Counted from the stretch's first letter, positions 7,645-23,969 are shown. The stretch: 51,592 nucleotides of DNA from Candidatus Cloacimonadota bacterium (GCA_021108395.1 JAIOQZ010000040.1:1-51592), one strand, 5' to 3'. The notes: generated from the letters alone by a model not told the origin. Numbers and translations: made by a program.

Positions 7645-9357
7645 TTATTCTTCTGCGAAGGTGAGCTTAATCACCTCACGGATGGAGGTGACTCCAGCCA
7701 ACATTTTTTCCATGGCGCTCTGGTGAAGAGTCTGCATGCCGTTTTCAATCGCCTGATTACGGATAACATCCTGGTTGGCGCCATCGAAGATGAGCTTGCG
7801 AATGTTCGCCTTCACCTCGAGCAACTCAAAGATGCCGGTACGGCCCTGATAGCCGGTGTTGTCGCAATGCACACAACCCTTGCCGATTTTCAAGTCAAGC
7901 TCGTCCACAATTTCAGGGTCGATGCCTGCCTCGATGATATCGAGCTCGGTCGGTTTGTAATTGCTCTTACAATGCGGACATATCTTGCGAACAAGACGCT
8001 GTGCCATCACCAGGTTCAGCGACGAACCGACCAGAAAGCCCGGAATACCGATGTCGATAATACGGGTGATGGTGGCGGCCGCGTCGTTGGCGTGGAGCGT
8101 GGTGAACACAAGGTGGCCGGTGAGCGAGAACTTGATGGCGATGTCGGCGGTTTCCTCGTCACGAATTTCACCGAGAAGCACGATGTCTGGGTCCTGACGC
8201 ATGACAGAGCGAAGAGCCGCGGCAAACGTAAGCCCGATGCGCTCTTTCACTTCGATCTGCGTGACACTCTCCAGACGATACTCGACCGGGTCTTCCACCG
8301 TAACGATGTTGCTCTCGATGTCCTCGATCTCTTTGAGCGCCGAGTGAAGTGTCGTTGACTTGCCCGAACCAGTGGGACCGGACACGATGATGATACCGTA
8401 GGGACGGAATATCCACTTGCGGAACACTTTGTAATGGGCCTCCTCGAAACCGAGCGTGCCGAGCGTAAACCCGAATTCGCCCTTGTCGAGCAGACGCATC
8501 ACGACCTTCTCGCCCAGCACTGTCGGCACAATGGACACACGCACGTCAACGCTCTTGACAGAGGTCTTGAGCGCAATATGGCCATCCTGAGGCAGACGGC
8601 GCTCGGCGATGTTGAGCTTGGACATCACCTTGGTGAGTGAGACAAGCCCTGAGTGCATACCTATGGGCGGTGACATCACCTCGCGCAAGGCGCCGTCGAT
8701 GCGGAACCGTACACGAGTGTTCTTCGAGAGTGGCTCGATGTGAATGTCGGTGGTGTTAGACTTGATAGCCTCTTTGATGATGAGGTTCAGCAGTTTTACC
8801 ACCGGGGCGTTTGCAGTCGAGCCATCCTTCTCGAGGTTGATCTCTTCTTCTTCATCGTCAACCGCCACGAAGTCGAACGCGCCCACAGCGTCATCCACCT
8901 CGGAAGAGGTGCGAATCGATTTGTAGTGCCGTTCGAGTGAGTCTCGAAGCAACATCTCGCCGATGATCACTGCCCGCGGCGGTTTGGGCAACATCTTCGT
9001 CAGGCCGTCATGGATGATGATATTCTCAGGATCCGTCATCGCCACAATGATGGAATCAGGGTCTTCGCGCAAGGCGATGACCCGATTCTCTACGGCGAAC
9101 GGCTCTGGAATCAGCTTGACTACCGATGCTTTGATATCAACCACATCTTCTTCAGTGGCAATATCCAGATCCAGTTGCAGGTGGAGGCCATCGAGCAGCT
9201 GCTTCTCGGTGATGTAGCCCAGCTTGATGAGGGTCTCGCCGATTTTCATGGCGAAATTGCCCTGCTTCAGCAACGCTTCCTTGATCTGGTCATCGTCACA
9301 ATAGCCCTTGTGGACGAGAACCTCTCCGAGGCGCGCAAATTGCGGGTTAAACGACAT
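7645..9357 (-). CDS. pilB: Type IV pilus assembly ATPase PilB/GspE
   Basis: This 570-aa AAA-type secretion ATPase has an N-terminal MshEN/GspE_N domain (about 1-150). Walker A is GPTGSGKSTT (about 327-336), the Asp box is TVEDPVEY, Walker B is DPDIVLLGEIRDEET and the His box region is TGHLVFTTLHAND. The zinc-binding Cys set of PilB/GspE is present as CPHC and CVHC. It powers pilus extension at the cytoplasmic face of PilC. The ATG follows an AAGGAGAG site. Confidence 0.96.
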   Translation of the reverse strand: MSFNPQFARLGEVLVHKGYCDDDQIKEALLKQGNFAMKIGETLIKLGYITEKQLLDGLHLQLDLDIATEEDVVDIKASVVKLIPEPFAVENRVIALREDPDSIIVAMTDPENIIIHDGLTKMLPKPPRAVIIGEMLLRDSLERHYKSIRTSSEVDDAVGAFDFVAVDDEEEEINLEKDGSTANAPVVKLLNLIIKEAIKSNTTDIHIEPLSKNTRVRFRIDGALREVMSPPIGMHSGLVSLTKVMSKLNIAERRLPQDGHIALKTSVKSVDVRVSIVPTVLGEKVVMRLLDKGEFGFTLGTLGFEEAHYKVFRKWIFRPYGIIIVSGPTGSGKSTTLHSALKEIEDIESNIVTVEDPVEYRLESVTQIEVKERIGLTFAAALRSVMRQDPDIVLLGEIRDEETADIAIKFSLTGHLVFTTLHANDAAATITRIIDIGIPGFLVGSSLNLVMAQRLVRKICPHCKSNYKPTELDIIEAGIDPEIVDELDLKIGKGCVHCDNTGYQGRTGIFELLEVKANIRKLIFDGANQDVIRNQAIENGMQTLHQSAMEKMLAGVTSIREVIKLTFAEE

Positions 9358-9379: not shown

Positions 9380-11428
9380 CTAATGGTAGTTCAGCATTAT
9401 TATCGTGCAGTTATCGGTTATCTCGGTACCATACAGAATGAAGGTCAGATCGACTGGCGTCTCGCCTGGTGGCGGTATAGCCCCCGGGCACTCGTACATC
9501 TGGAACAGAATGCGAGCTATAGCGAGGCCATCATAATTGGTCTTGATGAAATCTGGGCCCATATCTGTCTGGAATTCGGGATCGGGGTTGATGAATATGC
9601 CACGGGTGGCGTTGCACTGGATAATGGCGTCGTGCAGGTAGTTACCCTCCGAGTCCCTCACAATGCAGTGAACCTCGGCAATCTTGTCGCTGGTGTCTGG
9701 GGGGACCCAGTCCACATGCTGAGGAATCGGGTCGCAATCGAGCGTTGGCTGGTTCATAGGAAGCTTAAGCTCCGCTATGACGCTACATCCCATCGATGTG
9801 GCGCGAACGGTGATGATGTCGTTGGAATGGCTGCCGTCGTAGATGACGTAGCTGAACGCCACACCCGGCAGCGAGTCGCCGTCAACGCTGATGTTGCCGG
9901 TGTACCCCGAAGCGTTCACGGTTACAGAATCCAGTTCGGGATTCATCAGCTCGAAGAAAACGGCGGTTCCGTTAGTCACGGCGTTGCTGTTCGAGTCGGT
10001 CACATAAGCCGATATTCCAACCTGCCAGAGGCCGGAGCCATAGGCAGTGCCGGTATCGTATTCGCCAATACCAAGCTCAATGTCCTCCGGCAGACCAGCC
10101 TTGATAACGATGTTGCCCTTGGTGGAGCTGATGCGTTCGCCGGCTTCATTGTATGTATAGGCCTCGACGGTGATGGGGCCGGACACTGTGCCACTGTTGA
10201 TGGAAGCCGTGGCCAGACCGTTGAAGACAGGGACGCCCACCGAGTCGCCGGGAGCATAAACCACGCCGTCAATGTGGGCCTCATCGGGAGGGGTAAGGGC
10301 GAAGGTGAACCACACCGTCATATCATCGGTAATCATGTTACCGCTCATGTCCAGCAGGTACACCTGCAAGGGGGCGGACTCTACGCCACCGGTACCTTGC
10401 TGGTCGATCTCTATCGCGTCGGGGGGGAACTGGATTCTGCTCACTTCATCTGACGCGATGACAATGGCCGCATTGGCGCTGGCCGAGTCGCAGGCAGCGG
10501 TGACAGTGGCAAGGCCTGCCTCGACACCGGACGAGAAGGAGACAGTCGCCGTTCCGCTGGTGTCTGTGGCGGCGCTTGCGGGGATGTCACCCAGGTCGGC
10601 AGTGAAGGTCACGGTGGCCTGTTCGCGTATCGTGTTGTTAAAACGGTCTTTAACTGTTGCGGTCACAGTCGTTTCTTCACCAACGTTAATCGGCTCTGTC
10701 GGCACTGTCATGTTGATGGAAATGCCTGTGCCGGGGATAATATCCACAAGGCGTTCCGCGTCGTGAGCGCCAAGAGTGGCCTTGATGGTTGCCTCGCCCT
10801 TCTGGGTGCCGCTGTTATAGTACACCTTGGCGATACCGTTCGAGGTCGTCGCCATTTGGCGCGTACCAAGATCGCCGCCTTCAAGCAAGGTGAAGTAGCC
10901 GCGGTCACAGTCGAAAACTACCTGTGTACCATCGTCAACGGGCAAGCCGTGCTCGGTGATGACTGTAGCGGTTATCTGCATGGCGGTGTCCACAATCAGA
11001 ATATTGCTGCCCACTGTCATGTTAATTTCCCCGATTTCGGGCGCTTGCTTGATGGTGACTTGAGCTGTCTCGCTGTCGCCACCCACGAAGGCGAATATCT
11101 CGGAGACGCCCTCCTGGTTGCTGTCCCAGAACAATGCTTCGGCGACGCCCGAACTGTCGGTGTCTTTGTAGGCTTCAATCGTGCCGAGGCTCGATTTGAA
11201 CGAGACACGCTGGCCGGGCACGGGGAACCCGTTGTTGTCTTTCACATAGACCCAAACGGTGGAGAAGGTAATGTTGTTATCGGCATAGATGGTATCTGGA
11301 TTGACTTCCATCCGTGCTATACTGTGCGTGACCGGATCTCCGGCACGGTCGTCACAGGCGACAATCAGGAGCGCTGCCATGACGGAAAAGATCAGGAGCG
11401 CCGCAGGTAGGAATTTTTTCCAATTCAT
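9380..11428 (-). CDS. Lipoprotein with multiple invasin/Big-type Ig-like repeats
   Basis: The 682-aa product has a lipoprotein signal (MNWKKFLPAALL...) with lipobox LIVAC, the Cys at about residue 25. The rest is a string of roughly five to six bacterial Ig-like (invasin/Big_1 type) domains. Each carries motifs such as VTATVKDRFNN, TDTSGTATVSFSSG and NGIAKVYYNSG, typical of the fold. It lies between the secretin and pilB genes (12-base and 22-base gaps) and so is part of the pilus operon. It could brace the secretin, act as a surface adhesin or serve as a large pilotin-like partner. That role is inference from position; the Ig and lipoprotein calls come from sequence. Confidence 0.85.
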   Translation of the reverse strand: MNWKKFLPAALLIFSVMAALLIVACDDRAGDPVTHSIARMEVNPDTIYADNNITFSTVWVYVKDNNGFPVPGQRVSFKSSLGTIEAYKDTDSSGVAEALFWDSNQEGVSEIFAFVGGDSETAQVTIKQAPEIGEINMTVGSNILIVDTAMQITATVITEHGLPVDDGTQVVFDCDRGYFTLLEGGDLGTRQMATTSNGIAKVYYNSGTQKGEATIKATLGAHDAERLVDIIPGTGISINMTVPTEPINVGEETTVTATVKDRFNNTIREQATVTFTADLGDIPASAATDTSGTATVSFSSGVEAGLATVTAACDSASANAAIVIASDEVSRIQFPPDAIEIDQQGTGGVESAPLQVYLLDMSGNMITDDMTVWFTFALTPPDEAHIDGVVYAPGDSVGVPVFNGLATASINSGTVSGPITVEAYTYNEAGERISSTKGNIVIKAGLPEDIELGIGEYDTGTAYGSGLWQVGISAYVTDSNSNAVTNGTAVFFELMNPELDSVTVNASGYTGNISVDGDSLPGVAFSYVIYDGSHSNDIITVRATSMGCSVIAELKLPMNQPTLDCDPIPQHVDWVPPDTSDKIAEVHCIVRDSEGNYLHDAIIQCNATRGIFINPDPEFQTDMGPDFIKTNYDGLAIARILFQMYECPGAIPPPGETPVDLTFILYGTEITDNCTIIMLNYH

Positions 11429-11440
11429 GATTCCTCCGGG

Positions 11441-12814
11441 TTACTCCGTCTCATGGAGAAGACGGGTTTCAAGGCGTTCGTCGATTTCAAAACTGGCTTG
11501 TTCTTCGCCAAGATTCACCACGCGAGGCGTAATCTCGATGATTAAGTCAGTGGTTCTCATTGTTTCTACGTTGTGCGTAAAGAAACCACCGATGAAGGGA
11601 AGGTCACCCAGGAAAGGAACCTTGCTTGTCGTTGTGATGAGCTGATTGGAAAGCAGGCCACCCACGATAATTTTGCTGCCGTTGGGCACGGTAACGGTGG
11701 TTTCCACCTCGCGAGTCTTGGTGCGCGGCACGCTGCCGTTCACCAATTCCACCACCGAACTCACCTCGGGCGCGATGCGGGTGGTGATGAGGCCGGCGGC
11801 ATTGATCTTGGGCACCACGGTCAGCTTGATGCCAACCTCTTCGCGCTCTACCGCGAAATCGTTATCCATGTCCCGTACAACGAAGGGGATAATCTCACCG
11901 ATCAAGATGCTGGCTTCTTCGCCGTTCAGGGCGGTGAGACGCGTGTCTGTCAGCAGTTGAGCCGCGTTGTTCTGCAACAGCCAGTCGATAGTGACATCGA
12001 AGGCATAGAGCTGGCGGCTGAAGTGGCCGAAGTTTTCCCAGTCGTCCATCTTCTGGAAATACTGGCCGTCGGGAAGCACGCCCAAAGTTTGCGTATCACC
12101 GTGCGTCAGGTTGCTGGTGGCGTCGGTGTAAGCGTAGGGAAGGCCGAAGCCGTCGGCGGTCATCGGATCTTCGGCGAGAATCGTTGTGAGGCTGTTGAGC
12201 CGCGACCAGTCGATACCGAGTTTCTTCGAATCATCGATTGAAATCTCGATGAGACGAGCGCGAATCTCGATCTGCTTCTGCGGAATGTCGATCTCTTCGA
12301 TGCGCTTGGCAATCTCGGAATAGGTTTCTGGGTTGGCGCGCAACAATATGGAGTTCTGGGCAGGCAGAGCCACGGCGTCGCCGGGCATGATGTCCAGAGC
12401 ATCCACAACAACTTCAACGTCGAGATAGTTGAGCCTGATTACATAACTGCGCTCACCAACCTCTTCCTCGATCAAGTCCCTGGCGCCCACCAGGAAGGTG
12501 TTATCGCCAATGAGACGATATGACAGGCCTACAGACTTGACCACGAGTGAAAGAGCCTGCTCGATAGGGACATCACTGAGATGGATGGTAACCCTTTGCT
12601 CTACAGCCTTGTCTTCGTCGGAAATCTGCGGTATGGCGAGAACTATGTTCGTCTCACTGAGATCGGCCATAGTGGTCAGTACATTGGAAAGAGCGCCGTC
12701 TTCCACGTTCAAAGTGATTTTTCTGTTCAGCAAGTCCATGTCCTGAGCTTGCAGAGCGACAAGCGCGAACAAACAGGTGAACAGTAAAATCCACGTTGCT
12801 TTTGAATTCAACAT
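11441..12814 (-). CDS. pilQ: Secretin (PilQ/GspD family)
   Basis: The 457-aa product has a signal peptide (to about LQAQD). A short N-domain resembles STN/N0 (VEDGALSNVLTTMADLSETNIV, about 37-60), followed by an N1/KH-like unit (IRLNYLDVEVVVDALD). The C-terminal secretin core (about 190-440) includes ETTVTVPNGSKIIVGGLL and KVPFLGDLPFIGGFF, the family signature. It forms the outer-membrane gate for the pilus. It is shorter than most PilQ (600-750 aa): AMIN domains are absent and there is one periplasmic N-domain pair only. Confidence 0.93.
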   Translation of the reverse strand: MLNSKATWILLFTCLFALVALQAQDMDLLNRKITLNVEDGALSNVLTTMADLSETNIVLAIPQISDEDKAVEQRVTIHLSDVPIEQALSLVVKSVGLSYRLIGDNTFLVGARDLIEEEVGERSYVIRLNYLDVEVVVDALDIMPGDAVALPAQNSILLRANPETYSEIAKRIEEIDIPQKQIEIRARLIEISIDDSKKLGIDWSRLNSLTTILAEDPMTADGFGLPYAYTDATSNLTHGDTQTLGVLPDGQYFQKMDDWENFGHFSRQLYAFDVTIDWLLQNNAAQLLTDTRLTALNGEEASILIGEIIPFVVRDMDNDFAVEREEVGIKLTVVPKINAAGLITTRIAPEVSSVVELVNGSVPRTKTREVETTVTVPNGSKIIVGGLLSNQLITTTSKVPFLGDLPFIGGFFTHNVETMRTTDLIIEITPRVVNLGEEQASFEIDERLETRLLHETE

Positions 12815-12839: not shown

Positions 12840-13376
12840 TTACCAATTTAAATCAGTGCTGGTTTCGTCTGTCTGTAATATCGCGGGCTTCTCGGGAATC
12901 GGGGAAATCTCGAGCACACCCTGATAGCCATTGTTCTGGAACACGATTTTGCCCTTCTGAATCGAAGAGATCGTGCCGAACTCGAAAGCGTCGCCCACAT
13001 GGTAGTTCGTGCGAATGCCTTTGTGCTCAATGGTGGCAAGCTGTTGGCCGCTGTGGGTAATGTATGTACCCGCCAGGCGCACCTGCGATTCCACTTCACG
13101 ACGCCACTGCATCTCGTAGTCCACAATCGTCTTCACGATCAGGTTCTGTTCGAGAGGGTCTTTGGTGACGGTGAACACAAAGTTCTTGCGATCCTGAATC
13201 GAGGTCTCAATCTGCTTGATCTCATTCTTGAGGTCGTCGCTGATGCCCACATGGGTATCGGGCTCTGCGGGGTACTGCTGGCATTCCTGATACCACATGA
13301 AGTCCTTTACGCCAAACACGATGATCATTACGAAGACGATAGCGATTGCGAAATCCTTGATGTATCTGCCTTCCAT
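12840..13376 (-). CDS. PilP-like pilus alignment protein
   Basis: The 178-aa product has one N-terminal membrane helix (DFAIAIVFVMIIVFGV, about 8-23). The C-terminal half resembles PilP: DPLEQNLIVK, then VRLAGTYITHSGQQLATIEHKG, YHVGDAFEFGTISSIQKGKIVFQ, a small beta barrel pattern. PilP links PilN/PilO in the inner membrane to PilQ. Classical PilP is a lipoprotein; this one has a membrane anchor and no lipobox. Its start overlaps the pilO stop, and it is followed by pilQ, the usual order. Confidence 0.75.
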   Translation of the reverse strand: MEGRYIKDFAIAIVFVMIIVFGVKDFMWYQECQQYPAEPDTHVGISDDLKNEIKQIETSIQDRKNFVFTVTKDPLEQNLIVKTIVDYEMQWRREVESQVRLAGTYITHSGQQLATIEHKGIRTNYHVGDAFEFGTISSIQKGKIVFQNNGYQGVLEISPIPEKPAILQTDETSTDLNW

Positions 13377-13969
13377 TATGCCTCCTCCTTCCTCACCTTG
13401 AAAGTGGAAAGGTCAAGCGTCACGCGGTAGCGCGTGGCTATTTCCTCCACCTCGCCGGCGGCTTCGGCTTCGGCCTGGGCCAATAGCTTCTTGTCTTCAC
13501 GAATGGGCAAAACGTCGAACGTGTTGATACGAATGATCATATCTGAACGTTCGAGCTTGGTAACGAATTGGCCAAGCTGCACATAGGTGCACTCGAACAC
13601 TATCGTGAACTGATGCTCCATCACCTTGCCAGGCGAGTAAGACTCCTTGGGCGAGAGGCTGACGACTGGAATCTTGAGCGTGTCGGCGAAATTGCCCAAC
13701 TGGTTGACGAACGCATTGATGTCTTCAGCCGGGAACTTTTCGGTCTCGGAGTCGGTGATGCTGTTACGAATCACCCTGGAAACCCCGGACAGCTCCCGAT
13801 TGAGCACCTGAGCGCTGTTCAGCCTGTCGATCGCCTTGCCAATCCGTCTGTCGAATTTCTTGATATCCTTGATTTGACCCTTGATCATCAAATTGCCCGT
13901 ATAGAAGAAAACGAAACTGAGCAGGATGATGCCTAAGAGAACGATCAGGTATTTTTCCTTATACTGCAT
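13376..13969 (-). CDS. pilO: PilO-like pilus alignment protein
   Basis: The 197-aa product has an N-terminal transmembrane helix (YLIVLLGIILLSFVFFYTG, about 7-25), a coiled-coil segment (about 30-60) and a C-terminal ferredoxin-like fold (VVSLSPKESYSPGKVMEHQFTIVFECTYVQLGQFVTKLERSDMIIRINTFDV). These are standard for PilO. The hydrophobic FxxxLERSDMIIRI stretch is the clearest family mark. It lies between pilN and the PilP-like gene and forms the inner-membrane dimer with PilN. Confidence 0.85.
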   Translation of the reverse strand: MQYKEKYLIVLLGIILLSFVFFYTGNLMIKGQIKDIKKFDRRIGKAIDRLNSAQVLNRELSGVSRVIRNSITDSETEKFPAEDINAFVNQLGNFADTLKIPVVSLSPKESYSPGKVMEHQFTIVFECTYVQLGQFVTKLERSDMIIRINTFDVLPIREDKKLLAQAEAEAAGEVEEIATRYRVTLDLSTFKVRKEEA

Positions 13970-13971
13970 GA

Positions 13972-14547
13972 TCAGTCCTCCTCTCGTGCCACACAGGCTA
14001 TTTCGAACTTCACGATGTCGGTGTCCTTCTCTTTGTCCTTCCTCGATTTCTCGAAGTAGATCTCGGGGAAATCGATCGCGATCTGCTCGTTGTTCTGTAG
14101 ATCGTTGATGAATCCCTCGATGATGAGGTCAAGCTCCTGCTGCTCACGATCGAGCGGTGTAATACCGAAGAGCTTGAGAACGCCGTTCTTGTAGGTAAAT
14201 TTCTCGATGGCGATTTTATCGTCGGTCTGTTCGGAAAAAGCAACCAGCTTTTTCGCCCAGAAGATACGGTTACGCGAAATCTCGGCGATCTTCTGGAGAT
14301 CCTCTGCCGAAAGGTAGTCGCCGCTTGTCTGGTACTTCTCGATCTGGCTATTGATGTCGGCCAGAACATCTCTGCGGAAATCGACCTTCTTCTGCATAGT
14401 GTATCTGAGGTAAAACACACCGCCGTAGAGTATGAGGAATAAAACAACGAAGCTGATGACCGTATTGCGGAATGTTCGCGCCTCAGCCTCGGCCTGCTGT
14501 TTCAATTCACCGTACTTGTTTAGATTGATTTTGAAGAAAAATTTCAT
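13972..14547 (-). CDS. pilN: PilN-like pilus alignment protein
   Basis: The 191-aa product starts FFFKINLNKYGEL, close to the FN(L)LP N-terminal motif of PilN that binds PilM. One membrane helix follows (TVISFVVLFLILYGGVFYL, about 29-47), then a coiled coil and a mixed alpha/beta C-terminus. The position directly after pilM and before pilO supports the call. The INLNK motif deviates from the canonical INLLP. Confidence 0.82.
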   Translation of the reverse strand: MKFFFKINLNKYGELKQQAEAEARTFRNTVISFVVLFLILYGGVFYLRYTMQKKVDFRRDVLADINSQIEKYQTSGDYLSAEDLQKIAEISRNRIFWAKKLVAFSEQTDDKIAIEKFTYKNGVLKLFGITPLDREQQELDLIIEGFINDLQNNEQIAIDFPEIYFEKSRKDKEKDTDIVKFEIACVAREED

Positions 14548-14555
14548 ATGTACTC

Positions 14556-15626
14556 CTATTCCGGTCTCATCGCCAGGCCGATGGCCAGGGCGAGCTGGGG
14601 ATCCTGCGTATCCCGGAATTTATCTGGCATTTCGAGATTGACGAACGGATTGAACACCTCGGTAGGAATGTTAATCGCCTTTTCGAGGTATTCGGGCAGA
14701 CCCGATATCTTGGCCGAGCCACCCACAAGAAGAACCTTGCGGAAATCGCTGTTGCCTGCTTCTTTTACGTAGAAACGCAACGAGCGGCGAACCTCGACGG
14801 CGATTTGTTCGACTGTCGATTTTTCGGCGATGTCGAGCACTGCGCCGGTGGATTCGGTTTCCTGTGCCTCGTCGCCGAGACCATGCTCGATCTTGAAGCG
14901 CTCGGCATCCTCGAAGCTAATGTCACGCTGGCGCATGATATCCCTGGTCATATGGAAGCCGCCCCATGGAATATCGCGGGCAAAGAACTTCGCATTGGCG
15001 CCATAGATGATCATGTTGGTCTTGTGAGCGCCGATGTTGAGGATGATGTGCGTACCCTCTTCCGACAGCGTATTGAGTGCATAGCAATTGGCTATGGCCA
15101 ACGATTCCACGTCAACCAAGCCGGGCGCCACTCCCGCCTGCTGTAGAATATCGGTATGCTCACTCAGCATGCTCTTGGTCGAAGCGGCCAACAAGATGTT
15201 CATGTTGTTGGTCTTCTCCTCGACATTGAGCACCTGGAAGTCGAGAAGCATCTCGCCGCCGCTGATGGGCAGGTGCTTCTTCGCTTCAAAGAACAACGCG
15301 CTTTCCAGTTCCTCTTCGGGCAAAAAGATCGTCTTGATCTGCTTGAGCGAAGTGTTGTCGCCCCCAATGGAGCTCACCAGCCGCTTGATGCTGCGCGGTT
15401 TCATCCGAAGCGACTTGAATATGTCGATCAGGCTGGTGGGGAAGCGATCTTTGCGAAGATCCGAGATGGAGTATTCCACTCCATCGGGAATCGTTGGCTT
15501 AATCGCGTAATTCAGGAGCTTGAATCCATCGTGCATACGCTTCAGGTGCACAAGCTTGATGCTGTGCGAGCCGATGTCGAGACCGACAGACTCCTTGAAA
15601 CGCTTAACCTTGTGTTTCTTAGCCAT
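14556..15626 (-). CDS. pilM: PilM actin-like pilus assembly protein
   Basis: The 356-aa product has the actin-like phosphate-1 loop VGLDIGSHSIKLV (about residues 14-26), a second nucleotide motif NIGAHKTNMIIY and a C-terminal VLLVGGSAKISGLPEYLEK, as in PilM/FtsA-like ATPases. It is cytoplasmic, binds the PilN N-terminus and couples the alignment complex to the motor. Length and gene order are normal. It is 75 bases downstream of the last giant minor-pilin-like gene and begins the classical pilMNOPQ block. Confidence 0.94.
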   Translation of the reverse strand: MAKKHKVKRFKESVGLDIGSHSIKLVHLKRMHDGFKLLNYAIKPTIPDGVEYSISDLRKDRFPTSLIDIFKSLRMKPRSIKRLVSSIGGDNTSLKQIKTIFLPEEELESALFFEAKKHLPISGGEMLLDFQVLNVEEKTNNMNILLAASTKSMLSEHTDILQQAGVAPGLVDVESLAIANCYALNTLSEEGTHIILNIGAHKTNMIIYGANAKFFARDIPWGGFHMTRDIMRQRDISFEDAERFKIEHGLGDEAQETESTGAVLDIAEKSTVEQIAVEVRRSLRFYVKEAGNSDFRKVLLVGGSAKISGLPEYLEKAINIPTEVFNPFVNLEMPDKFRDTQDPQLALAIGLAMRPE

Positions 15627-15701: not shown

Positions 15702-17549
15702 TCAGAATGAACTCGGCGGACGCTGGAACCGAATCGCCACTCCCTCATAAAGCCCCTGGCTGCCGACAATGCTCACCTCGGGGAAGTTGGGTGGCGGATG
15801 ATTGATGAAGCGCCGATCGTAATGATAGTCTTTATCGTAACCCACGCCGTTTTTGCCGTTGGGTGTTCCCGGTGCATTGAGGCCCCAGGCCGGCGGCGGA
15901 CCATAGCGGTAGCCGTCGAGGTCCCACCAGCCGGTATCGAGCGGGTCGCCGCCGCTGCGATGCACAAAGCCGCGCCGCATCTGCGCCACAGAGCCGAACA
16001 GGTGAATCAAGCCGCGCTCTTTGACAGGCAGCGCCTCTGGCCATAGCGGGTTGTACCACGGGTAGTCTGGGCCTTGCGGGTCGTTCATGGCGGCATAGTT
16101 GTAACCGCCGCCGCCCTTGGCCGGCCAGGGCCAATATGGCGGGTCAGCCGGCGGATAGTAACCCAGATGCAGGTCGATGTTGTCGAAATACTCGCCCTGG
16201 TACCAGGTGTTCGGCGTTGACTGATGGGGATACTGATACTCGAAACTGAAAACGCCGTCCTGGTGGGGATCGCCCTGGCCATTGCCCAGCGCGGCCAGAG
16301 CGCCGTAGATGTAGATGCCTTCGTTATAGTCATCGCAGTTGGGGCGATGGCGCACACTGTCGACCGGGTTTTTGTATCCATACTGTATCAAAATCGACTT
16401 GGCGGCCACCAACCCGAGGTAATCGCGCTGGTTTTCGCTTTCGCTGCCTGAGCCATCGGGTGGGACGCCAGGTGTTGTGTGGTGGTAGGTAATGTCTCCC
16501 GCCAACTTCATGGTGCCTTCGGTGGCCCAAGTCATCGCGCCTCTGCACACACCTTTAATCCACAGCTCGTCTGACTCGACAAGAAAGGTGGCGCCATTGC
16601 CGATGCTGCTACCGGCGCTAACCCATGTAGTGTCCCGCAGAGCGAGATAATTGTAGCCCAGCGAATCGCCGATGGGGCCGTATGGCGGGTACAGGTTGTA
16701 AACAAACAAAGTATCTGGCTCTAATATATCGAAAGTAGCGAGTTGCGCCGTATATGAAGCGCCCTCGATGGTGACAAAGGAGATGGGATGTATCGACCAC
16801 ATGTGCGTTCCGTTTTGGCGGATCAGGTTCATCGAAGGGCTGAAGTCGATCTCAGGAGCGTGCTCTGTGTAGCCGTCGAGAAATACCTGATCTGGATTGG
16901 GAGCGCCATCGGAGCAAATCTCGCCCGCCGTGCTCACATGCCCGTGAAACGTCGGCCACCCGCCCACGTTTTGTAGCCAGATGTCGGTGTTGCTGTGTAC
17001 GCGGCCCCAGAGCTCGTCGTAACCATAAAAATAGACAGGGTCGTTGTTGACTGACTCGTCGGTGTTGGTGAGGTACATATAACCGGCGAAGGTTTGCCGC
17101 TGCACTGTCTTGCGCCCGAACGTCTCGACCGGTGATTTATGCCGCGAGCCACCGAAGCTCGTACTCGATGAGCGGGTGCGGAATGCCCGCACCAGGGTGG
17201 TAATCCCGCGCCGTGTATAAACCTGCAGGCCGCCTTGCAGTTGCGCCCGCCCGATTTTTGTTTTTATCGCGAAGGTGGTGCGAGAAAGCCCGTTGTGAAT
17301 CTCGACGTAGCGCACCGGCAGCGTCAGGTTATCGATGCTGCTGGGCAGAAAAGAGTTGGCCACGTTCCCGCGGCGGATGTCGGAGCGCAACAGACTGAGC
17401 TCCTGCACCTGGTCGAGCTGATAGAGGGCGGCGTTGGCGTCGCGCCCCGCCACCATCGACATACTGAGCCCGGAGATGAGCGCAACGATGCTCACAAGTA
17501 TCGCAATAGCTATCTCGCCTTTTTCATTGGCCACATGCGGACGTTTCAT
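15702..17549 (-). CDS. Giant PilX/GspK-like minor pilin paralogue 3 (last of tandem trio)
   Basis: The 615-aa product starts NEKG followed by a hydrophobic stretch (EIAIAILVSIVALISGLSM, about 11-29) and then GRDANAALYQLDQVQEL. This layout recalls PilX/GspK minor pilins (prepilin-like Gly, hydrophobic helix, then ERMAGNxRD-like). Residue +5 is Ala, not Glu, as in GspK. The exported part has WGRVHSNTDIWL (about 181-192) and GGWPTFHGHVSTAG, shared with the two neighbours, and a C-terminal RFQRPPSSF tail. It resembles DUF4900-type proteins. It has an AAGGAGGAG ribosome binding site. Placement in the pilus operon suggests a pilus tip or cargo role; this is inferred. Confidence 0.75.
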   Translation of the reverse strand: MKRPHVANEKGEIAIAILVSIVALISGLSMSMVAGRDANAALYQLDQVQELSLLRSDIRRGNVANSFLPSSIDNLTLPVRYVEIHNGLSRTTFAIKTKIGRAQLQGGLQVYTRRGITTLVRAFRTRSSSTSFGGSRHKSPVETFGRKTVQRQTFAGYMYLTNTDESVNNDPVYFYGYDELWGRVHSNTDIWLQNVGGWPTFHGHVSTAGEICSDGAPNPDQVFLDGYTEHAPEIDFSPSMNLIRQNGTHMWSIHPISFVTIEGASYTAQLATFDILEPDTLFVYNLYPPYGPIGDSLGYNYLALRDTTWVSAGSSIGNGATFLVESDELWIKGVCRGAMTWATEGTMKLAGDITYHHTTPGVPPDGSGSESENQRDYLGLVAAKSILIQYGYKNPVDSVRHRPNCDDYNEGIYIYGALAALGNGQGDPHQDGVFSFEYQYPHQSTPNTWYQGEYFDNIDLHLGYYPPADPPYWPWPAKGGGGYNYAAMNDPQGPDYPWYNPLWPEALPVKERGLIHLFGSVAQMRRGFVHRSGGDPLDTGWWDLDGYRYGPPPAWGLNAPGTPNGKNGVGYDKDYHYDRRFINHPPPNFPEVSIVGSQGLYEGVAIRFQRPPSSF

Positions 17550-17570
17550 GCTCTCCTCCTTGCTTTATTG

Positions 17571-19415
17571 TCAGTAACTGCTCGGCGGGGTCTGGAACAC
17601 CAGCGCTACACCATCAGACACTCTCTCTCCATCCAACAGGTTCACTTCGGGGAAGCTTGGCGGCGGGTGACTGGTGAAGCGCCGATCGTAACGATAATTC
17701 TTGTTGTAACCTATACCGTTTCTGGAGCAGGGTGTACCCGGCGCGTTCACTCCCCATGCGGGCGCGGGGCCATAGCGATGGTCGTCGATGTCCCACCAGC
17801 CGGTATCGAGCGGATCGCCGCCGCTACGGTGCATAAAGCCACGCCGCATCTGCGCCACAGAACCGTACAGATGAACACATCCACGCTCTTTGACAGGCAG
17901 CGCCTCCGGCCATAGCGGATTGTACCACGGATAGTCGGGGCCAACGGGGTCGCTTAACGCAACGTAGCTGTAGCCCCCGCCTTCGCGGGCCGGCCACGGC
18001 CAATAGTTTGGGCTGCTCGATGGATAGAAACCCAGATGAAGGTCGATGTTGTCGTACCATTCACCTTCGTAAAGCGTATTGGGTGTGCTCTCGTGCGGAT
18101 ACTGGTACTCAAAAGAAAATACGCCGTCGTTGTGCGGCTCGCCATCTCCAAACGCGGCCAGCGCGGCGTAGATGTAGATACCATCTGCATAGTTATCGCA
18201 GTTGGGACGATGACGCAGGCCGTCAACAGGATCTTTGAACCCATACTGGATAAGGATGTTGCTGTTCGACACCAGCCCCAGGTAATCCACATGGTTCACA
18301 GGGTGGCCGTATGAGCCGTCGGGTGGGGTGCCAATTTGTGTGTGGGAATATGTGATGTCTCCCGCCAGCCTCATGACGCCCTCACTGGCCCAGGTTTGCT
18401 CGCCGCCACACACGCCCCGTATCCACAGCTCGTCTGACAGGACATAGAACGTGCTGCCATTGCCTATACCGCCGCAAGATGCAAGCCACACTGTGTCTTG
18501 CACAGTGATGACGTTGTAACCCAGCGAATCGCCGATGGAGCCGTATGGCGGGTACATATCATAGACGATCAGTGTGTCGGGCGGGTTTTCCACAAAAGTA
18601 GCGAGTTGCGCCGTATAGGCATTGCCTTCGAGGGTTACGAAGGCGATATCGTAGCAGTCCCACAGGTGTATTCCATCTTGATGAACCAGGTCCATCGCCG
18701 AGCCGAAATCGATCTCGCCGGTGCGCTCGGTGTAGCCATCGAGGAATACCTCGTCAGGATTGGGGCAGAAGCCCTGATATTGGAAGATGCCGGCCGTGCT
18801 CACATGCCCGTGAAACGTGGGCCAGCCACCGAAGTTTTTCAGCCAGATGTCGGTATTGCTGTGCACGCGGCCCCAGATTTCATCGTAGCCATAGAAAAAG
18901 ACAGGATCGCCGTTGACGGATTGCTCGGTGTTGGTGAGGTACGCATAGCTGGCGAATGTCTGCCTCTGGATGACCTTTTGCCCAAATGTCTCGATGGGAG
19001 ACTTCTTTCTGGTACCATAGAAGCTCGCGGCCCCGGTGCGGGTGCGGAACGCCCGAACCATGCTGGTTATCTTGCGCCTGTTGTAGGGCAGTATAACTCC
19101 GGCCAGGGTGTCGCCAATCTTTGTCTTGATCACATATGTGGTGTGCGAGAAACCGTTGTTCATCTCGATAATGCGCATGGGCAGGGTTACATTGTCGTTA
19201 CTGATGGTGGCCATGTATTTGTGAGCCGCGCCCCCGCGACGGATGCCGGAGCGCAACAGGCTTAGCTCTTGAACCTGGTCGAACTGATGGAGAGCGGTGG
19301 TGGCGTCTCTGCCCGCAACCATCGACATGCTGAGCCCAGAGATGAGCGCTACGATGCTAACAAGCATCGCAATAGCGATCTCACCTTTCTGATTGGCCAC
19401 ATGCGGACGTTTCAC
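17571..19415 (-). CDS. Giant PilX/GspK-like minor pilin paralogue 2
   Basis: The 614-aa product is closely related to both flanking genes. The N-terminus reads NQKG, EIAIAMLVSIVALISGLSM, then GRDATTALHQFDQVQEL. It keeps the WGRVHSNTDIWL and WPTFHGHVSTAG block, a long Tyr/Trp/Pro/Gly-rich middle and an ending FQTPPSSY. It starts with GTG after GGGGAGGAGAG, unlike the ATG starts of the other two. The middle region (about 215-400) diverges most between copies, while N-terminal helix, HSNTDIWL block and C-terminal 150 residues are strongly kept. The function is unknown; a pilus-linked exported protein is inferred. Confidence 0.75.
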   Translation of the reverse strand: MKRPHVANQKGEIAIAMLVSIVALISGLSMSMVAGRDATTALHQFDQVQELSLLRSGIRRGGAAHKYMATISNDNVTLPMRIIEMNNGFSHTTYVIKTKIGDTLAGVILPYNRRKITSMVRAFRTRTGAASFYGTRKKSPIETFGQKVIQRQTFASYAYLTNTEQSVNGDPVFFYGYDEIWGRVHSNTDIWLKNFGGWPTFHGHVSTAGIFQYQGFCPNPDEVFLDGYTERTGEIDFGSAMDLVHQDGIHLWDCYDIAFVTLEGNAYTAQLATFVENPPDTLIVYDMYPPYGSIGDSLGYNVITVQDTVWLASCGGIGNGSTFYVLSDELWIRGVCGGEQTWASEGVMRLAGDITYSHTQIGTPPDGSYGHPVNHVDYLGLVSNSNILIQYGFKDPVDGLRHRPNCDNYADGIYIYAALAAFGDGEPHNDGVFSFEYQYPHESTPNTLYEGEWYDNIDLHLGFYPSSSPNYWPWPAREGGGYSYVALSDPVGPDYPWYNPLWPEALPVKERGCVHLYGSVAQMRRGFMHRSGGDPLDTGWWDIDDHRYGPAPAWGVNAPGTPCSRNGIGYNKNYRYDRRFTSHPPPSFPEVNLLDGERVSDGVALVFQTPPSSY

Positions 19416-19436
19416 CCTCTCCTCCCCGTGTTATTG

Positions 19437-21287
19437 TCAGAAGCCCCGCGGCGGCCGTTGGAACCGTAGCGTAAGCCCCTGGAACAAGCCTTCTGAGCCT
19501 ATAATGTTCACCTCTGGAAAATCTGGCGGCGGGTTATCCATAAAGCGATAGTCGTAATGATAATCCTTGTCGTAGCCAACGCCGGAGCCATCCGAGCCCG
19601 GCGCGTTCATGCCAAAGGCAGGGGGCGGACCATAGCGGTAGGCGTCAGGCTGCCACCAGCCGGTATCCAGTGGGTCACCACCGCTGCGGTGAACGAATCC
19701 GCGCCGTGTCTGCGCCACCGAGCCATAGATGTGAATCATACCGCGCTCTTTGAAAGGAGTCCATTCTGGCCAGAGCGGGTTGTACCACGGGTAATCGGGA
19801 CCCGCGTTATCGCCAAGCGGGCCATAGTGGTAACCACCGCCACCCCTGGCCGGCCAGGGCCAATAGGGCAGATCTCCCGGCGGATACTTGCACATATGCA
19901 AATCGATATAATCAAAATACTCGTTGCCGACAGTCACATTGGGCGTACCGCGATGGGGGTACTGATATTCAAAGCTGAAGATGCCGTCCTGGTGAGCGTC
20001 ACCCTCGCCATCGCCCAAAGCGGCCATGCCTGCGTAAATATAAATGCCTTCTGCGTTACCGTCGCAGTTGTAATGGTGGCGCAATGTGTCACGCGGGTCA
20101 ACCAGGCCATACTGGATGAGAATCTGGCGCTCAGACACGAGCCCGAGATAGTCCTGGGTGTTTACGCCACCACCGCCATAGCCGTCTGGCGGGTCTCCCT
20201 TCTCGGTGTGGGTATAAAGTATATCATCCACCAACATCATATTGCCGGCAGAGCCCCAGGTCGATTCACCGCCGGATGTACCGGAGATCCACAGCTCGCC
20301 TGCTTCGACCATCTTGGAGCCGCCCTCGATGGATCCGCCACCGCCATTAGTCCAGGCGGTATCCTTGAAGGCGATGTAGTTGTAGTTGATCGAGTCGCCC
20401 ACCGGGCCGAATGGCGGATAGATGTTATAGATGAAAAGCGTATCCGGCGGATCTTCTGTGATTGTCGCAAGCATAACCTCGAAGTCACGGTCAATCAAGT
20501 CGACAAAGGCGATGTCGAATTCGTTCCATATGACTCCGCCATTTCGGCGGATAAGCAGCGCGTTGGGATTGAATTCGATTTCGCCGACATCGGGGTATTC
20601 AGAGTAGCCGTCGAGGAACACGTCGTCAGGATTGGGACTACCGTTCCAGTATTGGATGTGGCCGGCGGTGCTGACATGATCGTGAAAGAGAGGCCAGCCG
20701 CCGAAGTTTTTCAGCCAGATGTCGGTGTTGCTGTGCACCCGGCCCCAGATTTCATCGTAGCCATAGAAAAAGACGGGGTCATTGTTGACCGATTCGTCAA
20801 TGTTGCTCAGATACATGTATCCAGCGAAAGTTTGTTTCTGCACCGTCTTCATGCCGAAGGTCTCGATGGGAGATTTGTTGCGCGTTCCGTTGTAGTATGT
20901 GTTACCTATGGGACTCCGGAACGCCTTGATCTTGGATTGAATGGCGCGACGTGTAGCGTGCTGTAGGCCCGAGGGGACGTGGTCGCGGCCCACGCGGGTT
21001 TTCATGGCATAGGTGGTTCGGGCGCCGCCGCTGGAAATCTGCACATAACGGATGGGCAATATAATATTGCTCAAGCTTGTTGACATGTTGGCTGTGCACA
21101 CGAACCCGCGGCGCAGTTCGGAGCGCAACAGGCTGAGTTCCTGCACCTGGTCAAGCTGGTAAAGCGCCGCGTTGGCGTCGCGGCCGGCAACCATAGACAG
21201 GCTCAGACCAGACATCAAGGCCATGATACTAACCAGTATCGCTATGGCTACATCCCCTCTCTGACTCTTTAGGAGTTTGCCCAACAT
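19437..21287 (-). CDS. Giant PilX/GspK-like minor pilin paralogue 1 (first of trio)
   Basis: The 616-aa product has a different extreme N-terminus (MLGKLLKSQRG) followed by DVAIAILVSIMALMSGLSLSM and GRDANAALYQLDQVQEL, so the prepilin-like SQRG/D junction is clearest here. It shares WGRVHSNTDIWLKNFGGWP, the PDYPWYNPLWPE block, GFVHRSGGDPLDTGWW and the final RFQRPPRGF. It is separated from the upstream pseudopilin gene by about 100 bases carrying a candidate promoter, so the trio may be expressed partly on its own. Confidence 0.75.
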   Translation of the reverse strand: MLGKLLKSQRGDVAIAILVSIMALMSGLSLSMVAGRDANAALYQLDQVQELSLLRSELRRGFVCTANMSTSLSNIILPIRYVQISSGGARTTYAMKTRVGRDHVPSGLQHATRRAIQSKIKAFRSPIGNTYYNGTRNKSPIETFGMKTVQKQTFAGYMYLSNIDESVNNDPVFFYGYDEIWGRVHSNTDIWLKNFGGWPLFHDHVSTAGHIQYWNGSPNPDDVFLDGYSEYPDVGEIEFNPNALLIRRNGGVIWNEFDIAFVDLIDRDFEVMLATITEDPPDTLFIYNIYPPFGPVGDSINYNYIAFKDTAWTNGGGGSIEGGSKMVEAGELWISGTSGGESTWGSAGNMMLVDDILYTHTEKGDPPDGYGGGGVNTQDYLGLVSERQILIQYGLVDPRDTLRHHYNCDGNAEGIYIYAGMAALGDGEGDAHQDGIFSFEYQYPHRGTPNVTVGNEYFDYIDLHMCKYPPGDLPYWPWPARGGGGYHYGPLGDNAGPDYPWYNPLWPEWTPFKERGMIHIYGSVAQTRRGFVHRSGGDPLDTGWWQPDAYRYGPPPAFGMNAPGSDGSGVGYDKDYHYDYRFMDNPPPDFPEVNIIGSEGLFQGLTLRFQRPPRGF

Positions 21288-21388: not shown

Positions 21389-21979
21389 TTATGTGATGTC
21401 GTTAGCGACACGTGTAGTGAACTTCACCTTGCGAACTTTGTCTTCCCCAATTGTGATTTGAGCCTCCAGCACAATCTTCACGACATGGCTGGACCCGGCT
21501 CGCGAAAAAGTTAAACGCGTAACGCGTATATCGTCTTTGTGCTCGATGGGGAAAAGCACAATCGGACGCGGGGGAGTATCGACATACCGATAGTATGTCT
21601 TTATATTGCCTTCCCAGGCATCCCACCAGAAATCGACGTAGTCGAATGTATGAAGGGCTTCGCCCGTAGATTGAAAACACCTGATCCTGGAAAAGGTGTT
21701 ACCTCCGCTACCGCTCTGATTTGTAAACGAGATAGAATCTGCCGAGGCGATGCCCATGAAATCGGCACCGTAATCTCCCTCGACATTGATTCCGTGTTTC
21801 ATCTTGTAAACAGTGTTGAAGGCGTCGATCTGAAGATCAGAATACAAGTTGAGCTCTTCCCACTTCGCGAAGAAGATAACAACGCCCACGCCGGCCATGA
21901 ATGCCAGGAACCCGGCCACAGCGATAACGACAATCAGTTCTATCATGGTTGTGCCGCGACTGTCTTTCAGCAGATTCAT
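21389..21979 (-). CDS. Type IV pseudopilin (with Glu5)
   Basis: The 196-aa product has a short leader ending in DSRG and the mature helix TTMIELIVVIAVAGFLAF, with the conserved Glu at +5. This is a textbook class III signal cleaved by a prepilin peptidase. The rest is a beta-rich globular domain. It is likely a minor pilin (GspH/I/J or PilV/W type; subtype unclear). It overlaps the upstream pseudopilin by 4 bases (ATGA). Confidence 0.85.
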   Translation of the reverse strand: MNLLKDSRGTTMIELIVVIAVAGFLAFMAGVGVVIFFAKWEELNLYSDLQIDAFNTVYKMKHGINVEGDYGADFMGIASADSISFTNQSGSGGNTFSRIRCFQSTGEALHTFDYVDFWWDAWEGNIKTYYRYVDTPPRPIVLFPIEHKDDIRVTRLTFSRAGSSHVVKIVLEAQITIGEDKVRKVKFTTRVANDIT

Positions 21980-22410
21980 CTGAAATAATCCTCTCGCACC
22001 ATGATGGAGCGGAATTTCCTGTCAACAGGATTGAGCCATCTGATCTTCACTTCGATGATCAGGAAGTCAATCGGCTCACCGGTTGACATATCGGTTTCTT
22101 CTCTCACGTTCATCGTCATCTTGCCCTTGAGGCTTTCCAGCTCGGGGTATTCCTCGATGATGATTTCCTTATCGATGAAATAATCCGGACGGCCACGTAC
22201 TTTGAGGAAACGCATCTGCCAGTCAACCTCGCCTGCGGCGAGGAGGGTGGCGACTCGTGCATGATAGTTCTGAACCAACTGAGCCTCGGCATACAGGATA
22301 CCGATGTAGAGACCCAGAAACGAAACCAACAGCACGGTCGCCTCCACGATCACCGCAATGATGGTATAACCACCCTGCGATGCAAGAAATCCTCTCCTCA
22401 CGGTTGTCAT
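21976..22410 (-). CDS. Pseudopilin-like protein lacking Glu5
   Basis: The 144-aa product has leader MTTVRRGFLASQGG followed by YTIIAVIVEATVLLVSFLGL, a prepilin-like Gly junction and long hydrophobic helix. Position +5 is Ala rather than Glu. Lack of Glu5 is typical of GspK/PilX-type tip subunits. The globular part is small (about 95 residues). It sits between pilT and the Glu5 pseudopilin, with a 3-base gap to pilT. Confidence 0.75.
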   Translation of the reverse strand: MTTVRRGFLASQGGYTIIAVIVEATVLLVSFLGLYIGILYAEAQLVQNYHARVATLLAAGEVDWQMRFLKVRGRPDYFIDKEIIIEEYPELESLKGKMTMNVREETDMSTGEPIDFLIIEVKIRWLNPVDRKFRSIMVREDYFR

Positions 22411-23485: not shown

Positions 23486-23908
23486 TTAGTCTTCTTCTTC
23501 GTCAGTGTACTGATCGACGCCCCAGCCGCTGAAGGCTGCGTCATCAACATCGTAGCTAACCTGATGACCTTCGCCGGCAGGATGCTCGGCTGTGGAAGTG
23601 GCGACGAACTTTTTTGGTGGCTCGCCAATCACTTCAAATTCCCAGTTTTTGACGGTGGACTCGCCGAGTCTGCAGTCTTCGAGCGCGTTCTCGACGGAGT
23701 AGTCTTCGGTCGTGCCGAACTGCTGCTTATGGATGTTGAATGCATTGCGGATGGAGCGGATGGCCGACTGGGGCTCGGTGGCACGGGCTTTTTCCACGTA
23801 ACGCATGTAGATGGGTACGGCAATCGCGGCCAGAATGGCGACAATGATTACCACCACAAGAATCTCAATGAGGGTGAAACCCTTATTGTTGTTAACGAAC
23901 TTGGACAT
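23486..23908 (-). CDS. Major type IV pilin (GspG/PilA-like)
   Basis: The 140-aa product has leader MSKFVNNNKG, then mature FTLIEILVVVIIVAILAAIA with Phe1 and Glu5, a classic type IV pilin helix. The C-terminal domain is short and acidic, ending DQYTDEEED, with a single Cys. The ATG at 23908 follows AAGGAGG. It is the first gene of the pilus operon and has a sigma-54-like promoter just upstream, as many pilA genes do. It is most likely the major subunit. Confidence 0.92.
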   Translation of the reverse strand: MSKFVNNNKGFTLIEILVVVIIVAILAAIAVPIYMRYVEKARATEPQSAIRSIRNAFNIHKQQFGTTEDYSVENALEDCRLGESTVKNWEFEVIGEPPKKFVATSTAEHPAGEGHQVSYDVDDAAFSGWGVDQYTDEEED

Positions 23909-23952
23909 GCTTTCCTCCTTGGCTTCCAAGATTCTTATTGCGACAACAGTCA

Positions 23953-23969
23953 TGCAAATACTATTCCAA
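23953..23969 (-). promoter_or_regulatory. Candidate sigma-54 promoter of the pilus operon
   Basis: On the minus strand, TTGGAATAGTATTTGCA places GG (-24) and GC (-12) exactly 10 bases apart, with TTGCA matching the -12 consensus. A start about 12 bases on would give a leader of roughly 34 bases before the pilin ATG. The -24 half matches only TTGG of TTGGCACG. Sigma-54 control of pilin genes is well known in Pseudomonas, Geobacter and Myxococcus. Confidence 0.4.

What the first reader, a model, noticed from the sequence alone, without database searches (positions are those of the whole stretch)
15702..21287. Three tandem giant minor-pilin-like proteins inside a type IV pilus operon
Three paralogues of 614-616 aa share a prepilin-like N-terminus (Gly, hydrophobic helix, no Glu5) as in GspK/PilX, but carry about 550-residue exported domains with a fixed block (WGRVHSNTDIWL, HGHVSTAG, PDYPWYNPLWPE). 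Classical minor pilins are far smaller. They lie between the pseudopilins and pilM and may build a large pilus tip or cargo complex. The trio may define a new class of tip subunits; the N-terminal helix and C-terminal tail are conserved while the middle diverges.
Basis: partly seen in the sequence, partly recalled or inferred. Interest (0 to 1): 0.85.

Follow-up and report, generated by a model that had tools for sequence, protein, structure and literature searches.

The report
Oversized pilus-tip pilins with swappable module
Three neighbouring genes in a Cloacimonadota bacterium encode outsized pilus-tip subunits whose large outer module is also found in a protein exported by a different secretion system, and in many relatives the two copies have been copied into one another, which suggests that the pilus tip and the cell surface present the same binding module.

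Summary
Three full-length paralogues (616, 614, 615 aa; 58-69% identical) lie at the stated coordinates, minus strand, between two pseudopilins and pilM of a type IVa pilus operon. The genome belongs to Candidatus Cloacimonadota. All three have a cleavage-type glycine that is invariant in the family, no Glu5, and (modelled in one) a 60-residue helix. They occupy the GspK/PilX ("K") position. In about 35 related genomes the order pilA-pilT-I-J-giant-pilM-N-O-P-Q is conserved, usually with one giant. The only significant solved-structure match is ComZ of Thermus, a tip pilin with an inserted beta-solenoid, so "large tip pilin" is not a new class. By sequence the module is only distantly DUF4900-like.

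New here: residues ~155-592 form a module that also occurs, splitting a beta-propeller, in ~950-residue proteins with type IX sorting domains. The propeller scaffold follows taxonomy; the modules do not. 33 of 40 are closest to their own genome's pilus copy, and one pair shares 77 identical codons. Genomes with neither form lack pilM but keep the type IX translocon. Best reading: ComZ-like tip caps, triplicated here, whose module is homogenised with a type IX surface partner. The ligand is unknown.

The parts
19437..21287 (-). Giant K-position minor pilin T1 (616 aa), first of three tandem copies
17571..19415 (-). Giant K-position minor pilin T2 (614 aa, GTG start); AlphaFold2 model m348925010476
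15702..17549 (-). Giant K-position minor pilin T3 (615 aa)
20823..21287 (-). Pilin frame of T1, residues 1-155: leader, Gly11, helix, first strands (T2: 18951-19415; T3: 17085-17549)
19512..20831 (-). Exchangeable module of T1, residues ~153-592, distantly DUF4900-like, strand-rich
17640..18959 (-). Exchangeable module of T2 (residues ~153-592)
15774..17093 (-). Exchangeable module of T3 (residues ~153-592)
21389..21979 (-). J-type pseudopilin (PilW/GspJ position), 196 aa, Glu5 present
21976..22410 (-). I-type pseudopilin (PilV/GspI position), 144 aa, Glu5 replaced by Ala in this genome
22414..23628 (-). PilT retraction ATPase (TIGR01420, 485 bits); true start probably internal
23486..23953 (-). 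PilA-like major pilin (GFTLIE motif)
14556..15626 (-). PilM (TIGR01175 over cut-off)
12840..14547 (-). pilN, pilO, pilP (13972-14547, 13376-13969, 12840-13376); named from position, size and conserved order; pilP has weak GspC similarity
11441..12814 (-). PilQ secretin (named from sequence and position)
9380..11428 (-). Ig-like (Big_1/invasin) putative lipoprotein, conserved member of the operon
7645..9357 (-). PilB assembly ATPase (named from sequence and conserved order)
6422..7399 (-). PilC-type platform protein (two T2SSF domains)

Best explanation
The three proteins are K-position (GspK/PilX/ComZ-like) minor pilins. Prepilin peptidase would cut after Gly11. The mature helix would join the small I and J pseudopilins to form the priming and capping complex of a type IVa pilus; lacking Glu5, the giant would sit at the very tip. 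Between the pilin frame (residues 1 to ~155) and its returning last strand (~600-608) is a ~440-residue strand-rich module, presented beyond the tip as a ligand-binding domain. The tandem copies are probably alternative tips. The same module is displayed a second way, inserted in a beta-propeller protein with a type IX sorting domain, and in many lineages the two modules are homogenised within a genome by gene conversion or domain replacement. Shown: gene order, N-terminal motif, module boundaries, two carriers, shared absence with the pilus, within-genome homogenisation. Inferred: cleavage, tip location, adhesive function, conversion as the mechanism. Unknown: the ligand.
For: Conserved order pilA-pilT-I-J-giant-pilM-N-O-P-Q-Ig-pilB in about 35 other genomes, some cut by contig ends; giant next to pilM in five further fragmented genomes. 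Gly11 invariant in 22 of 22, no Glu5. The N-terminal profile finds only Geobacter pilins in the PDB, weakly (E 0.043). Model: helix 9-68, strands, long strand-rich part, last strand 600-608. Foldseek: the only two PDB matches with E <= 0.001 are both ComZ chains, E 1.4e-5 and 6.3e-5, probability 0.99. Prepilin peptidase and platform protein present. Second carrier with TIGR04183 over cut-off, propeller plus type IX tail by fold; similar module borders in 40 pairs. Module tree: 19 carrier changes, 18 forced by supported branches; one clade of type IX modules rejected, p-AU 1e-53; 33 of 40 nearest to own genome's pilus copy among pilus copies, permutation mean 1.5, maximum 12; 77 identical codons in a row in G122; scaffold tree follows taxonomy. 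Sixteen genomes without the module lack pilM; all ten of these that were tested keep SprA.
Against: No PilX_N or T2SSK Pfam match and no PDB match by sequence for the full protein. TM-scores to ComZ are low (0.19-0.30), so the match supports the architecture, not a superposable structure. Model confidence is moderate (pLDDT 77.9), several loops under 50. No complex with I and J could be modelled. Two family-f6 genomes have a pilus operon without a giant in it, the copies lying elsewhere. A recent conversion tract is clearly significant in only one pair; elsewhere synonymous sites are near saturation. No conversion signal is seen among the three window copies.
Confidence: 0.72

Rival explanations
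1. DNA-uptake tip receptor: the module binds DNA, as ComZ does in Thermus, and the pilus is a competence pilus.
For: ComZ is the best structural match and binds DNA (PMC6561018); a ComEC channel gene is present in the genome; a retraction ATPase is in the operon.
Against: ComEC is widespread (10 of 14 control genomes). The module is also exported by the type IX route in propeller proteins, which a DNA-uptake role does not predict. The conserved motifs are rich in Trp, Tyr, Pro and acidic residues, more typical of glycan binding (inference).
Confidence: 0.2
2. Cargo or secreted effector: the operon acts as a type II-like secretion system and the giants are released substrates or an enzyme, not tip subunits.
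For: The pilin frame is a small part of the protein; type IX-exported versions show that the module can act outside a pilus.
Against: PilT-PilB-PilMNOPQ set with a PilA-like major pilin; giants lie in the K position and keep the pilin frame. No enzyme family matches.
Confidence: 0.1
3. The two carriers are a matched recognition pair: the pilus tip and the type IX surface protein bind each other or the same polymer, so that within-genome copying keeps them matched (self-recognition, or docking of a pilus on a neighbouring cell).
For: Within-genome homogenisation across carriers; every genome inspected that has the type IX form also has the pilus form, and the 16 genomes with neither lack pilM although the ten tested keep SprA.
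Against: Many genomes have the pilus form with no detected type IX form (for example G010, a single-contig genome), so the partner is dispensable or diverged. Within a genus the two forms can drift apart. Gene conversion needs no matching function.
Confidence: 0.2
4. The homogenisation signal is an artefact: paralogue chimaeras in metagenome assemblies or a tree artefact.
For: Nearly all genomes are drafts, many of them probably metagenome assemblies; the strongest tract (G122) is a single case.
Against: The pattern recurs in many genera at 50-80% identity, which assembly errors cannot make; permutation and AU tests are decisive; scaffold and module give different histories from the same genes.
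Confidence: 0.07

Closest known systems
ComZ, competence-associated tip pilin of Thermus thermophilus (PDB 6QVI; PMC6561018)
   Same: Large minor pilin without the usual pilin motifs, pilin domain of GspK type, a ~380-residue beta-solenoid inserted before the last pilin strand, gene adjacent to small minor pilins; proposed tip location. Best Foldseek match.
   Different: No detectable sequence similarity; the Cloacimonadota module is ~440 residues with its own conserved motifs; copies in tandem; module shared with type IX-exported proteins; DNA binding not known.
GspK / PilX K-type minor (pseudo)pilins
   Same: No Glu5, I-J-K gene order next to the assembly genes.
   Different: No Pfam match to PilX_N or T2SSK. 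In GspK the extra domain is alpha-helical and inserted between the third and fourth strands (PMC6561018); here it is strand-rich and lies before the last strand. About twice the size of GspK (own knowledge).
DUF4900 (Pfam PF16241)
   Same: 12 of 45 family members match at E <= 0.01, best 5.7e-6; 21.4 bits in T2 over residues 146-209.
   Different: The window copies are under the curated cut-off (29.4 bits); the Pfam model covers only the first ~65 residues of a ~440-residue module.
Modular minor pilins of Streptococcus sanguinis (PilB, PilC)
   Same: Minor pilins carrying a large grafted ligand-binding module (PMC8179133, PMC9934059; abstracts only).
   Different: Different modules and monoderm pili; not tested for homology here.
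Adhesin-domain rearrangement among surface proteins of Porphyromonas gingivalis (PMC5266723; abstract only)
   Same: Surface proteins of a type IX organism rearrange and exchange domains.
   Different: There the exchange is among surface proteins of one organism's strains; here it crosses between a type IV pilus subunit and a type IX-exported protein.

Membership tests
Type IVa pilus machine | PilM-N-O-P-Q set, PilB and PilT ATPases, platform protein, prepilin peptidase, major pilin | tested here: met
   (pilN/O/P/Q/B named largely from sequence, position and conserved order)
K-type minor pilin (GspK/PilX) | Prepilin leader with Gly at -1 and no Glu at +5 | tested here: met
K-type minor pilin (GspK/PilX) | Encoded after I and J pseudopilins | tested here: met
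   (about 35 genomes); exception in family f6
K-type minor pilin (GspK/PilX) | Sequence match to PilX_N or T2SSK profiles | tested here: not met
   no such hit
K-type minor pilin (GspK/PilX) | Forms the tip heterotrimer with I and J | not testable with these tools
   no multimer prediction offered
ComZ-like tip pilin | Beta-solenoid inserted between penultimate and last pilin strands | tested here: inconclusive
   order of elements and best fold match agree, TM-scores low, loops poorly modelled
ComZ-like tip pilin | Sequence homology to ComZ | tested here: not met
   ComZ not found by phmmer or profile
ComZ-like tip pilin | DNA binding | not testable with these tools
   needs experiment
DUF4900 | Score over the Pfam gathering cut-off | tested here: not met
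   best 24.7 and 21.4 bits against 29.4
Type IX secretion substrate (second carrier, not the window proteins) | C-terminal type A sorting domain and a SprA translocon in the genome | tested here: met

The most novel reading that the evidence does not exclude
Cloacimonadota display one binding module in two ways, on the tip of a retractile type IV pilus and on a type IX-exported propeller protein, and keep the two matched within each genome by gene conversion; the pair works as a lineage-specific recognition system (self or shared polymer), with tandem and dispersed pilin copies as an alternative-tip repertoire.
Probability: 0.22. Interest if true: 0.85.

Novelty: new variant of a known kind. 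Interest (0 to 1): 0.62.

Why it matters
It places an uncharacterised, phylum-wide protein family at the K position of the type IV pilus and links it to a solved giant tip pilin (ComZ). It also shows one exported module shared, and repeatedly homogenised within genomes, between a pilus subunit and a type IX-secreted protein. No report of such exchange across two export routes turned up in the literature searched here. That makes the question of what these pilus tips recognise directly testable: both carriers of one genome should bind the same ligand, or each other.

Tried and rejected
Direct Pfam, NCBIfam and PDB sequence searches for a named function gave only sub-threshold DUF4900. PilY1 search in the genome: no hit, but the control did not ring, so absence is not shown. 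Conversion tracts among the three window copies: none significant. The window genome's own type IX partner (L024) is nearest to the window copies at 50%, but its codon-run p of 0.004 against T3 does not survive 75 tests. Tapirin cellulose adhesins appeared in Foldseek only at E 0.36-0.75, not significant; no paper in the library joined those terms. DUF4900 has no paper in the library. Promoter-like and terminator-like sites are no more frequent than in shuffles.

Full report
OBSERVATION. The three reading frames exist at the stated coordinates, minus strand, 616, 614 and 615 aa. They are 58-69% identical over the full length. The gaps between them are 21 nt each and carry similar ribosome-binding sites, as expected of tandem duplication. 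The fixed blocks are as described, except that HGHVSTAG is HDHVSTAG in T1. Divergence is greatest at residues ~61-100 and ~230-330, not over the whole middle.

WHERE IT IS. The window is one whole contig (C24) of a 2.89 Mb draft genome. The two named relatives found are Candidatus Cloacimonadota metagenome assemblies. The operon reads pilA, pilT, two pseudopilins, the trio, pilM, N, O, P, Q, an Ig-like protein, pilB and a platform protein. A prepilin peptidase is present elsewhere.

FAMILY. 101 of 125 genomes of the phylum have a match. In about 35 other genomes whose operon was read (some cut by contig ends), the giant lies after the J pseudopilin and before pilM: one copy in most, two in G028, G083, G084 and G116. 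Five further fragmented genomes have it beside pilM. In the two genomes of family f6 (G006, G014) the operon has no giant; eight and five copies lie elsewhere, singly or in arrays without pilus genes nearby, one of them with an in-frame stop. So the giant can leave the operon, but those copies keep the pilin frame.

PILIN FRAME. Gly11 is invariant in 22 of 22 aligned N-termini, with Gln49 and Arg55; residue +5 is not Glu. The N-terminal profile finds only two PDB chains, both Geobacter pilins, aligned Gly to Gly, at weak E-values (0.043, 0.47). The AlphaFold2 model of T2 (45 sequences, pLDDT 77.9, pTM 0.74) has one helix 9-68, pilin-like strands, a long strand-rich part, and a last strand 600-608. 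The only PDB matches with E <= 0.001 are two chains of ComZ (E 1.4e-5 and 6.3e-5, probability 0.99, TM 0.19-0.30). [quoted passage not shown]). The order of elements here agrees; the low TM-scores mean that superposition was not shown.

SECOND CARRIER. The search also found proteins of ~900-1000 aa that match only residues ~155-595. They begin with Sec-like signals (by eye), and all five tested end in a type IX sorting domain over the NCBIfam cut-off. A model of the window genome's own example (L024, pLDDT 84.8) has strands on both sides of the module, and its best matches are PorZ, PorU, sialidases and GH43 propellers: a beta-propeller split by the module, followed by the sorting domain. Alignments of 40 pairs within genomes mostly start at residue ~150-170 and end at ~590-630 of the pilus form, so the shared module coincides with the insert in the pilin frame.

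HOMOGENISATION. If the two carriers had separated once, type IX modules should form a clade. They do not: 19 carrier changes on the tree, at least 18 forced by supported branches; holding the type IX modules together costs 1653 log-likelihood units, p-AU 1.4e-53. 33 of 40 type IX modules are closer to their own genome's pilus copy than to any other genome's pilus copy (permutation mean 1.5, maximum 12 of 2000), and 17 are also closer to it than to any type IX module of another genome. The propeller scaffolds, in contrast, are homologous across genomes and follow family taxonomy with the minimum number of changes (8). In G122 the two genes share 77 identical codons in a row, with 40-codon identities running from 67% to 100%, the patchwork expected of gene conversion. 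In the other pairs examined synonymous sites are near saturation or highly diverged, and within one densely sampled genus the two forms drift separately. Homogenisation is therefore episodic. Conversion and replacement by domain duplication cannot be told apart in the old cases.

LINK TO THE PILUS. Sixteen genomes with no module of either kind have no pilM; the four weak hits are ~420-residue frames at 25-29% identity, probably FtsA. The ten of these tested all keep the SprA translocon. Every type IX-form genome inspected also has the pilus form. The type IX form thus goes with the pilus, not with its own exporter. The reverse is not true: pilus form without a detected type IX form is common.

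MECHANISM. Best supported: K-position tip minor pilins of ComZ architecture that cap a type IVa pilus together with I and J and present a binding module; three tandem copies are probably alternative tips. Cleavage, tip location and adhesion are inferred. Rivals are DNA receptor, released cargo, and matched recognition pair; the last is the most novel reading and is not excluded.

NOVELTY. A large tip pilin with an inserted solenoid is known (ComZ). The family, its module, its tandem and dispersed expansion, and its exchange with a type IX-exported protein were not found described in the papers searched; the library is incomplete. I class it as a new variant of a known kind.

Noticed in passing
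window 9380-11428 (-): A 682-aa protein with bacterial Ig-like (Big_1/invasin) repeats and a lipobox-like start (LLIVACD) lies between pilQ and pilB; the same gene is in the same place in essentially every operon read (490-1101 aa), so it looks like an unrecognised core part of this pilus.
   Followed up: partly
window 21976-22410 (-): The I-type pseudopilin of this genome has Ala instead of Glu at +5 (GYTIIAV), whereas many orthologues have Glu there.
   Followed up: no
window 24236-26272 (+): A 678-aa exported protein that resembles SurA/PpiC-type proteins by eye is divergent from pilA; similar proteins (two copies each) flank the operon in L135 and L136.
   Followed up: no
L026 2875-4821 (G006:C22): One giant copy in a three-gene array is interrupted by an in-frame TAA, a broken member of the dispersed repertoire.
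   Followed up: partly
L031 and L086 (G019), L079 (G032): Type IX-sorted carriers also occur as tandem arrays of two to four copies.
   Followed up: partly
window 29598-32414 (+): A 938-aa protein with a MAM-like domain and a type IX sorting domain lies on the plus strand further along the contig; no match to the module was reported.
   Followed up: no
L093 2892-4865 and L094 1634-4567 (G122): Pilus and type IX genes share a 231-bp exactly identical stretch; a good place to look for recent gene conversion or an assembly error.
   Followed up: partly
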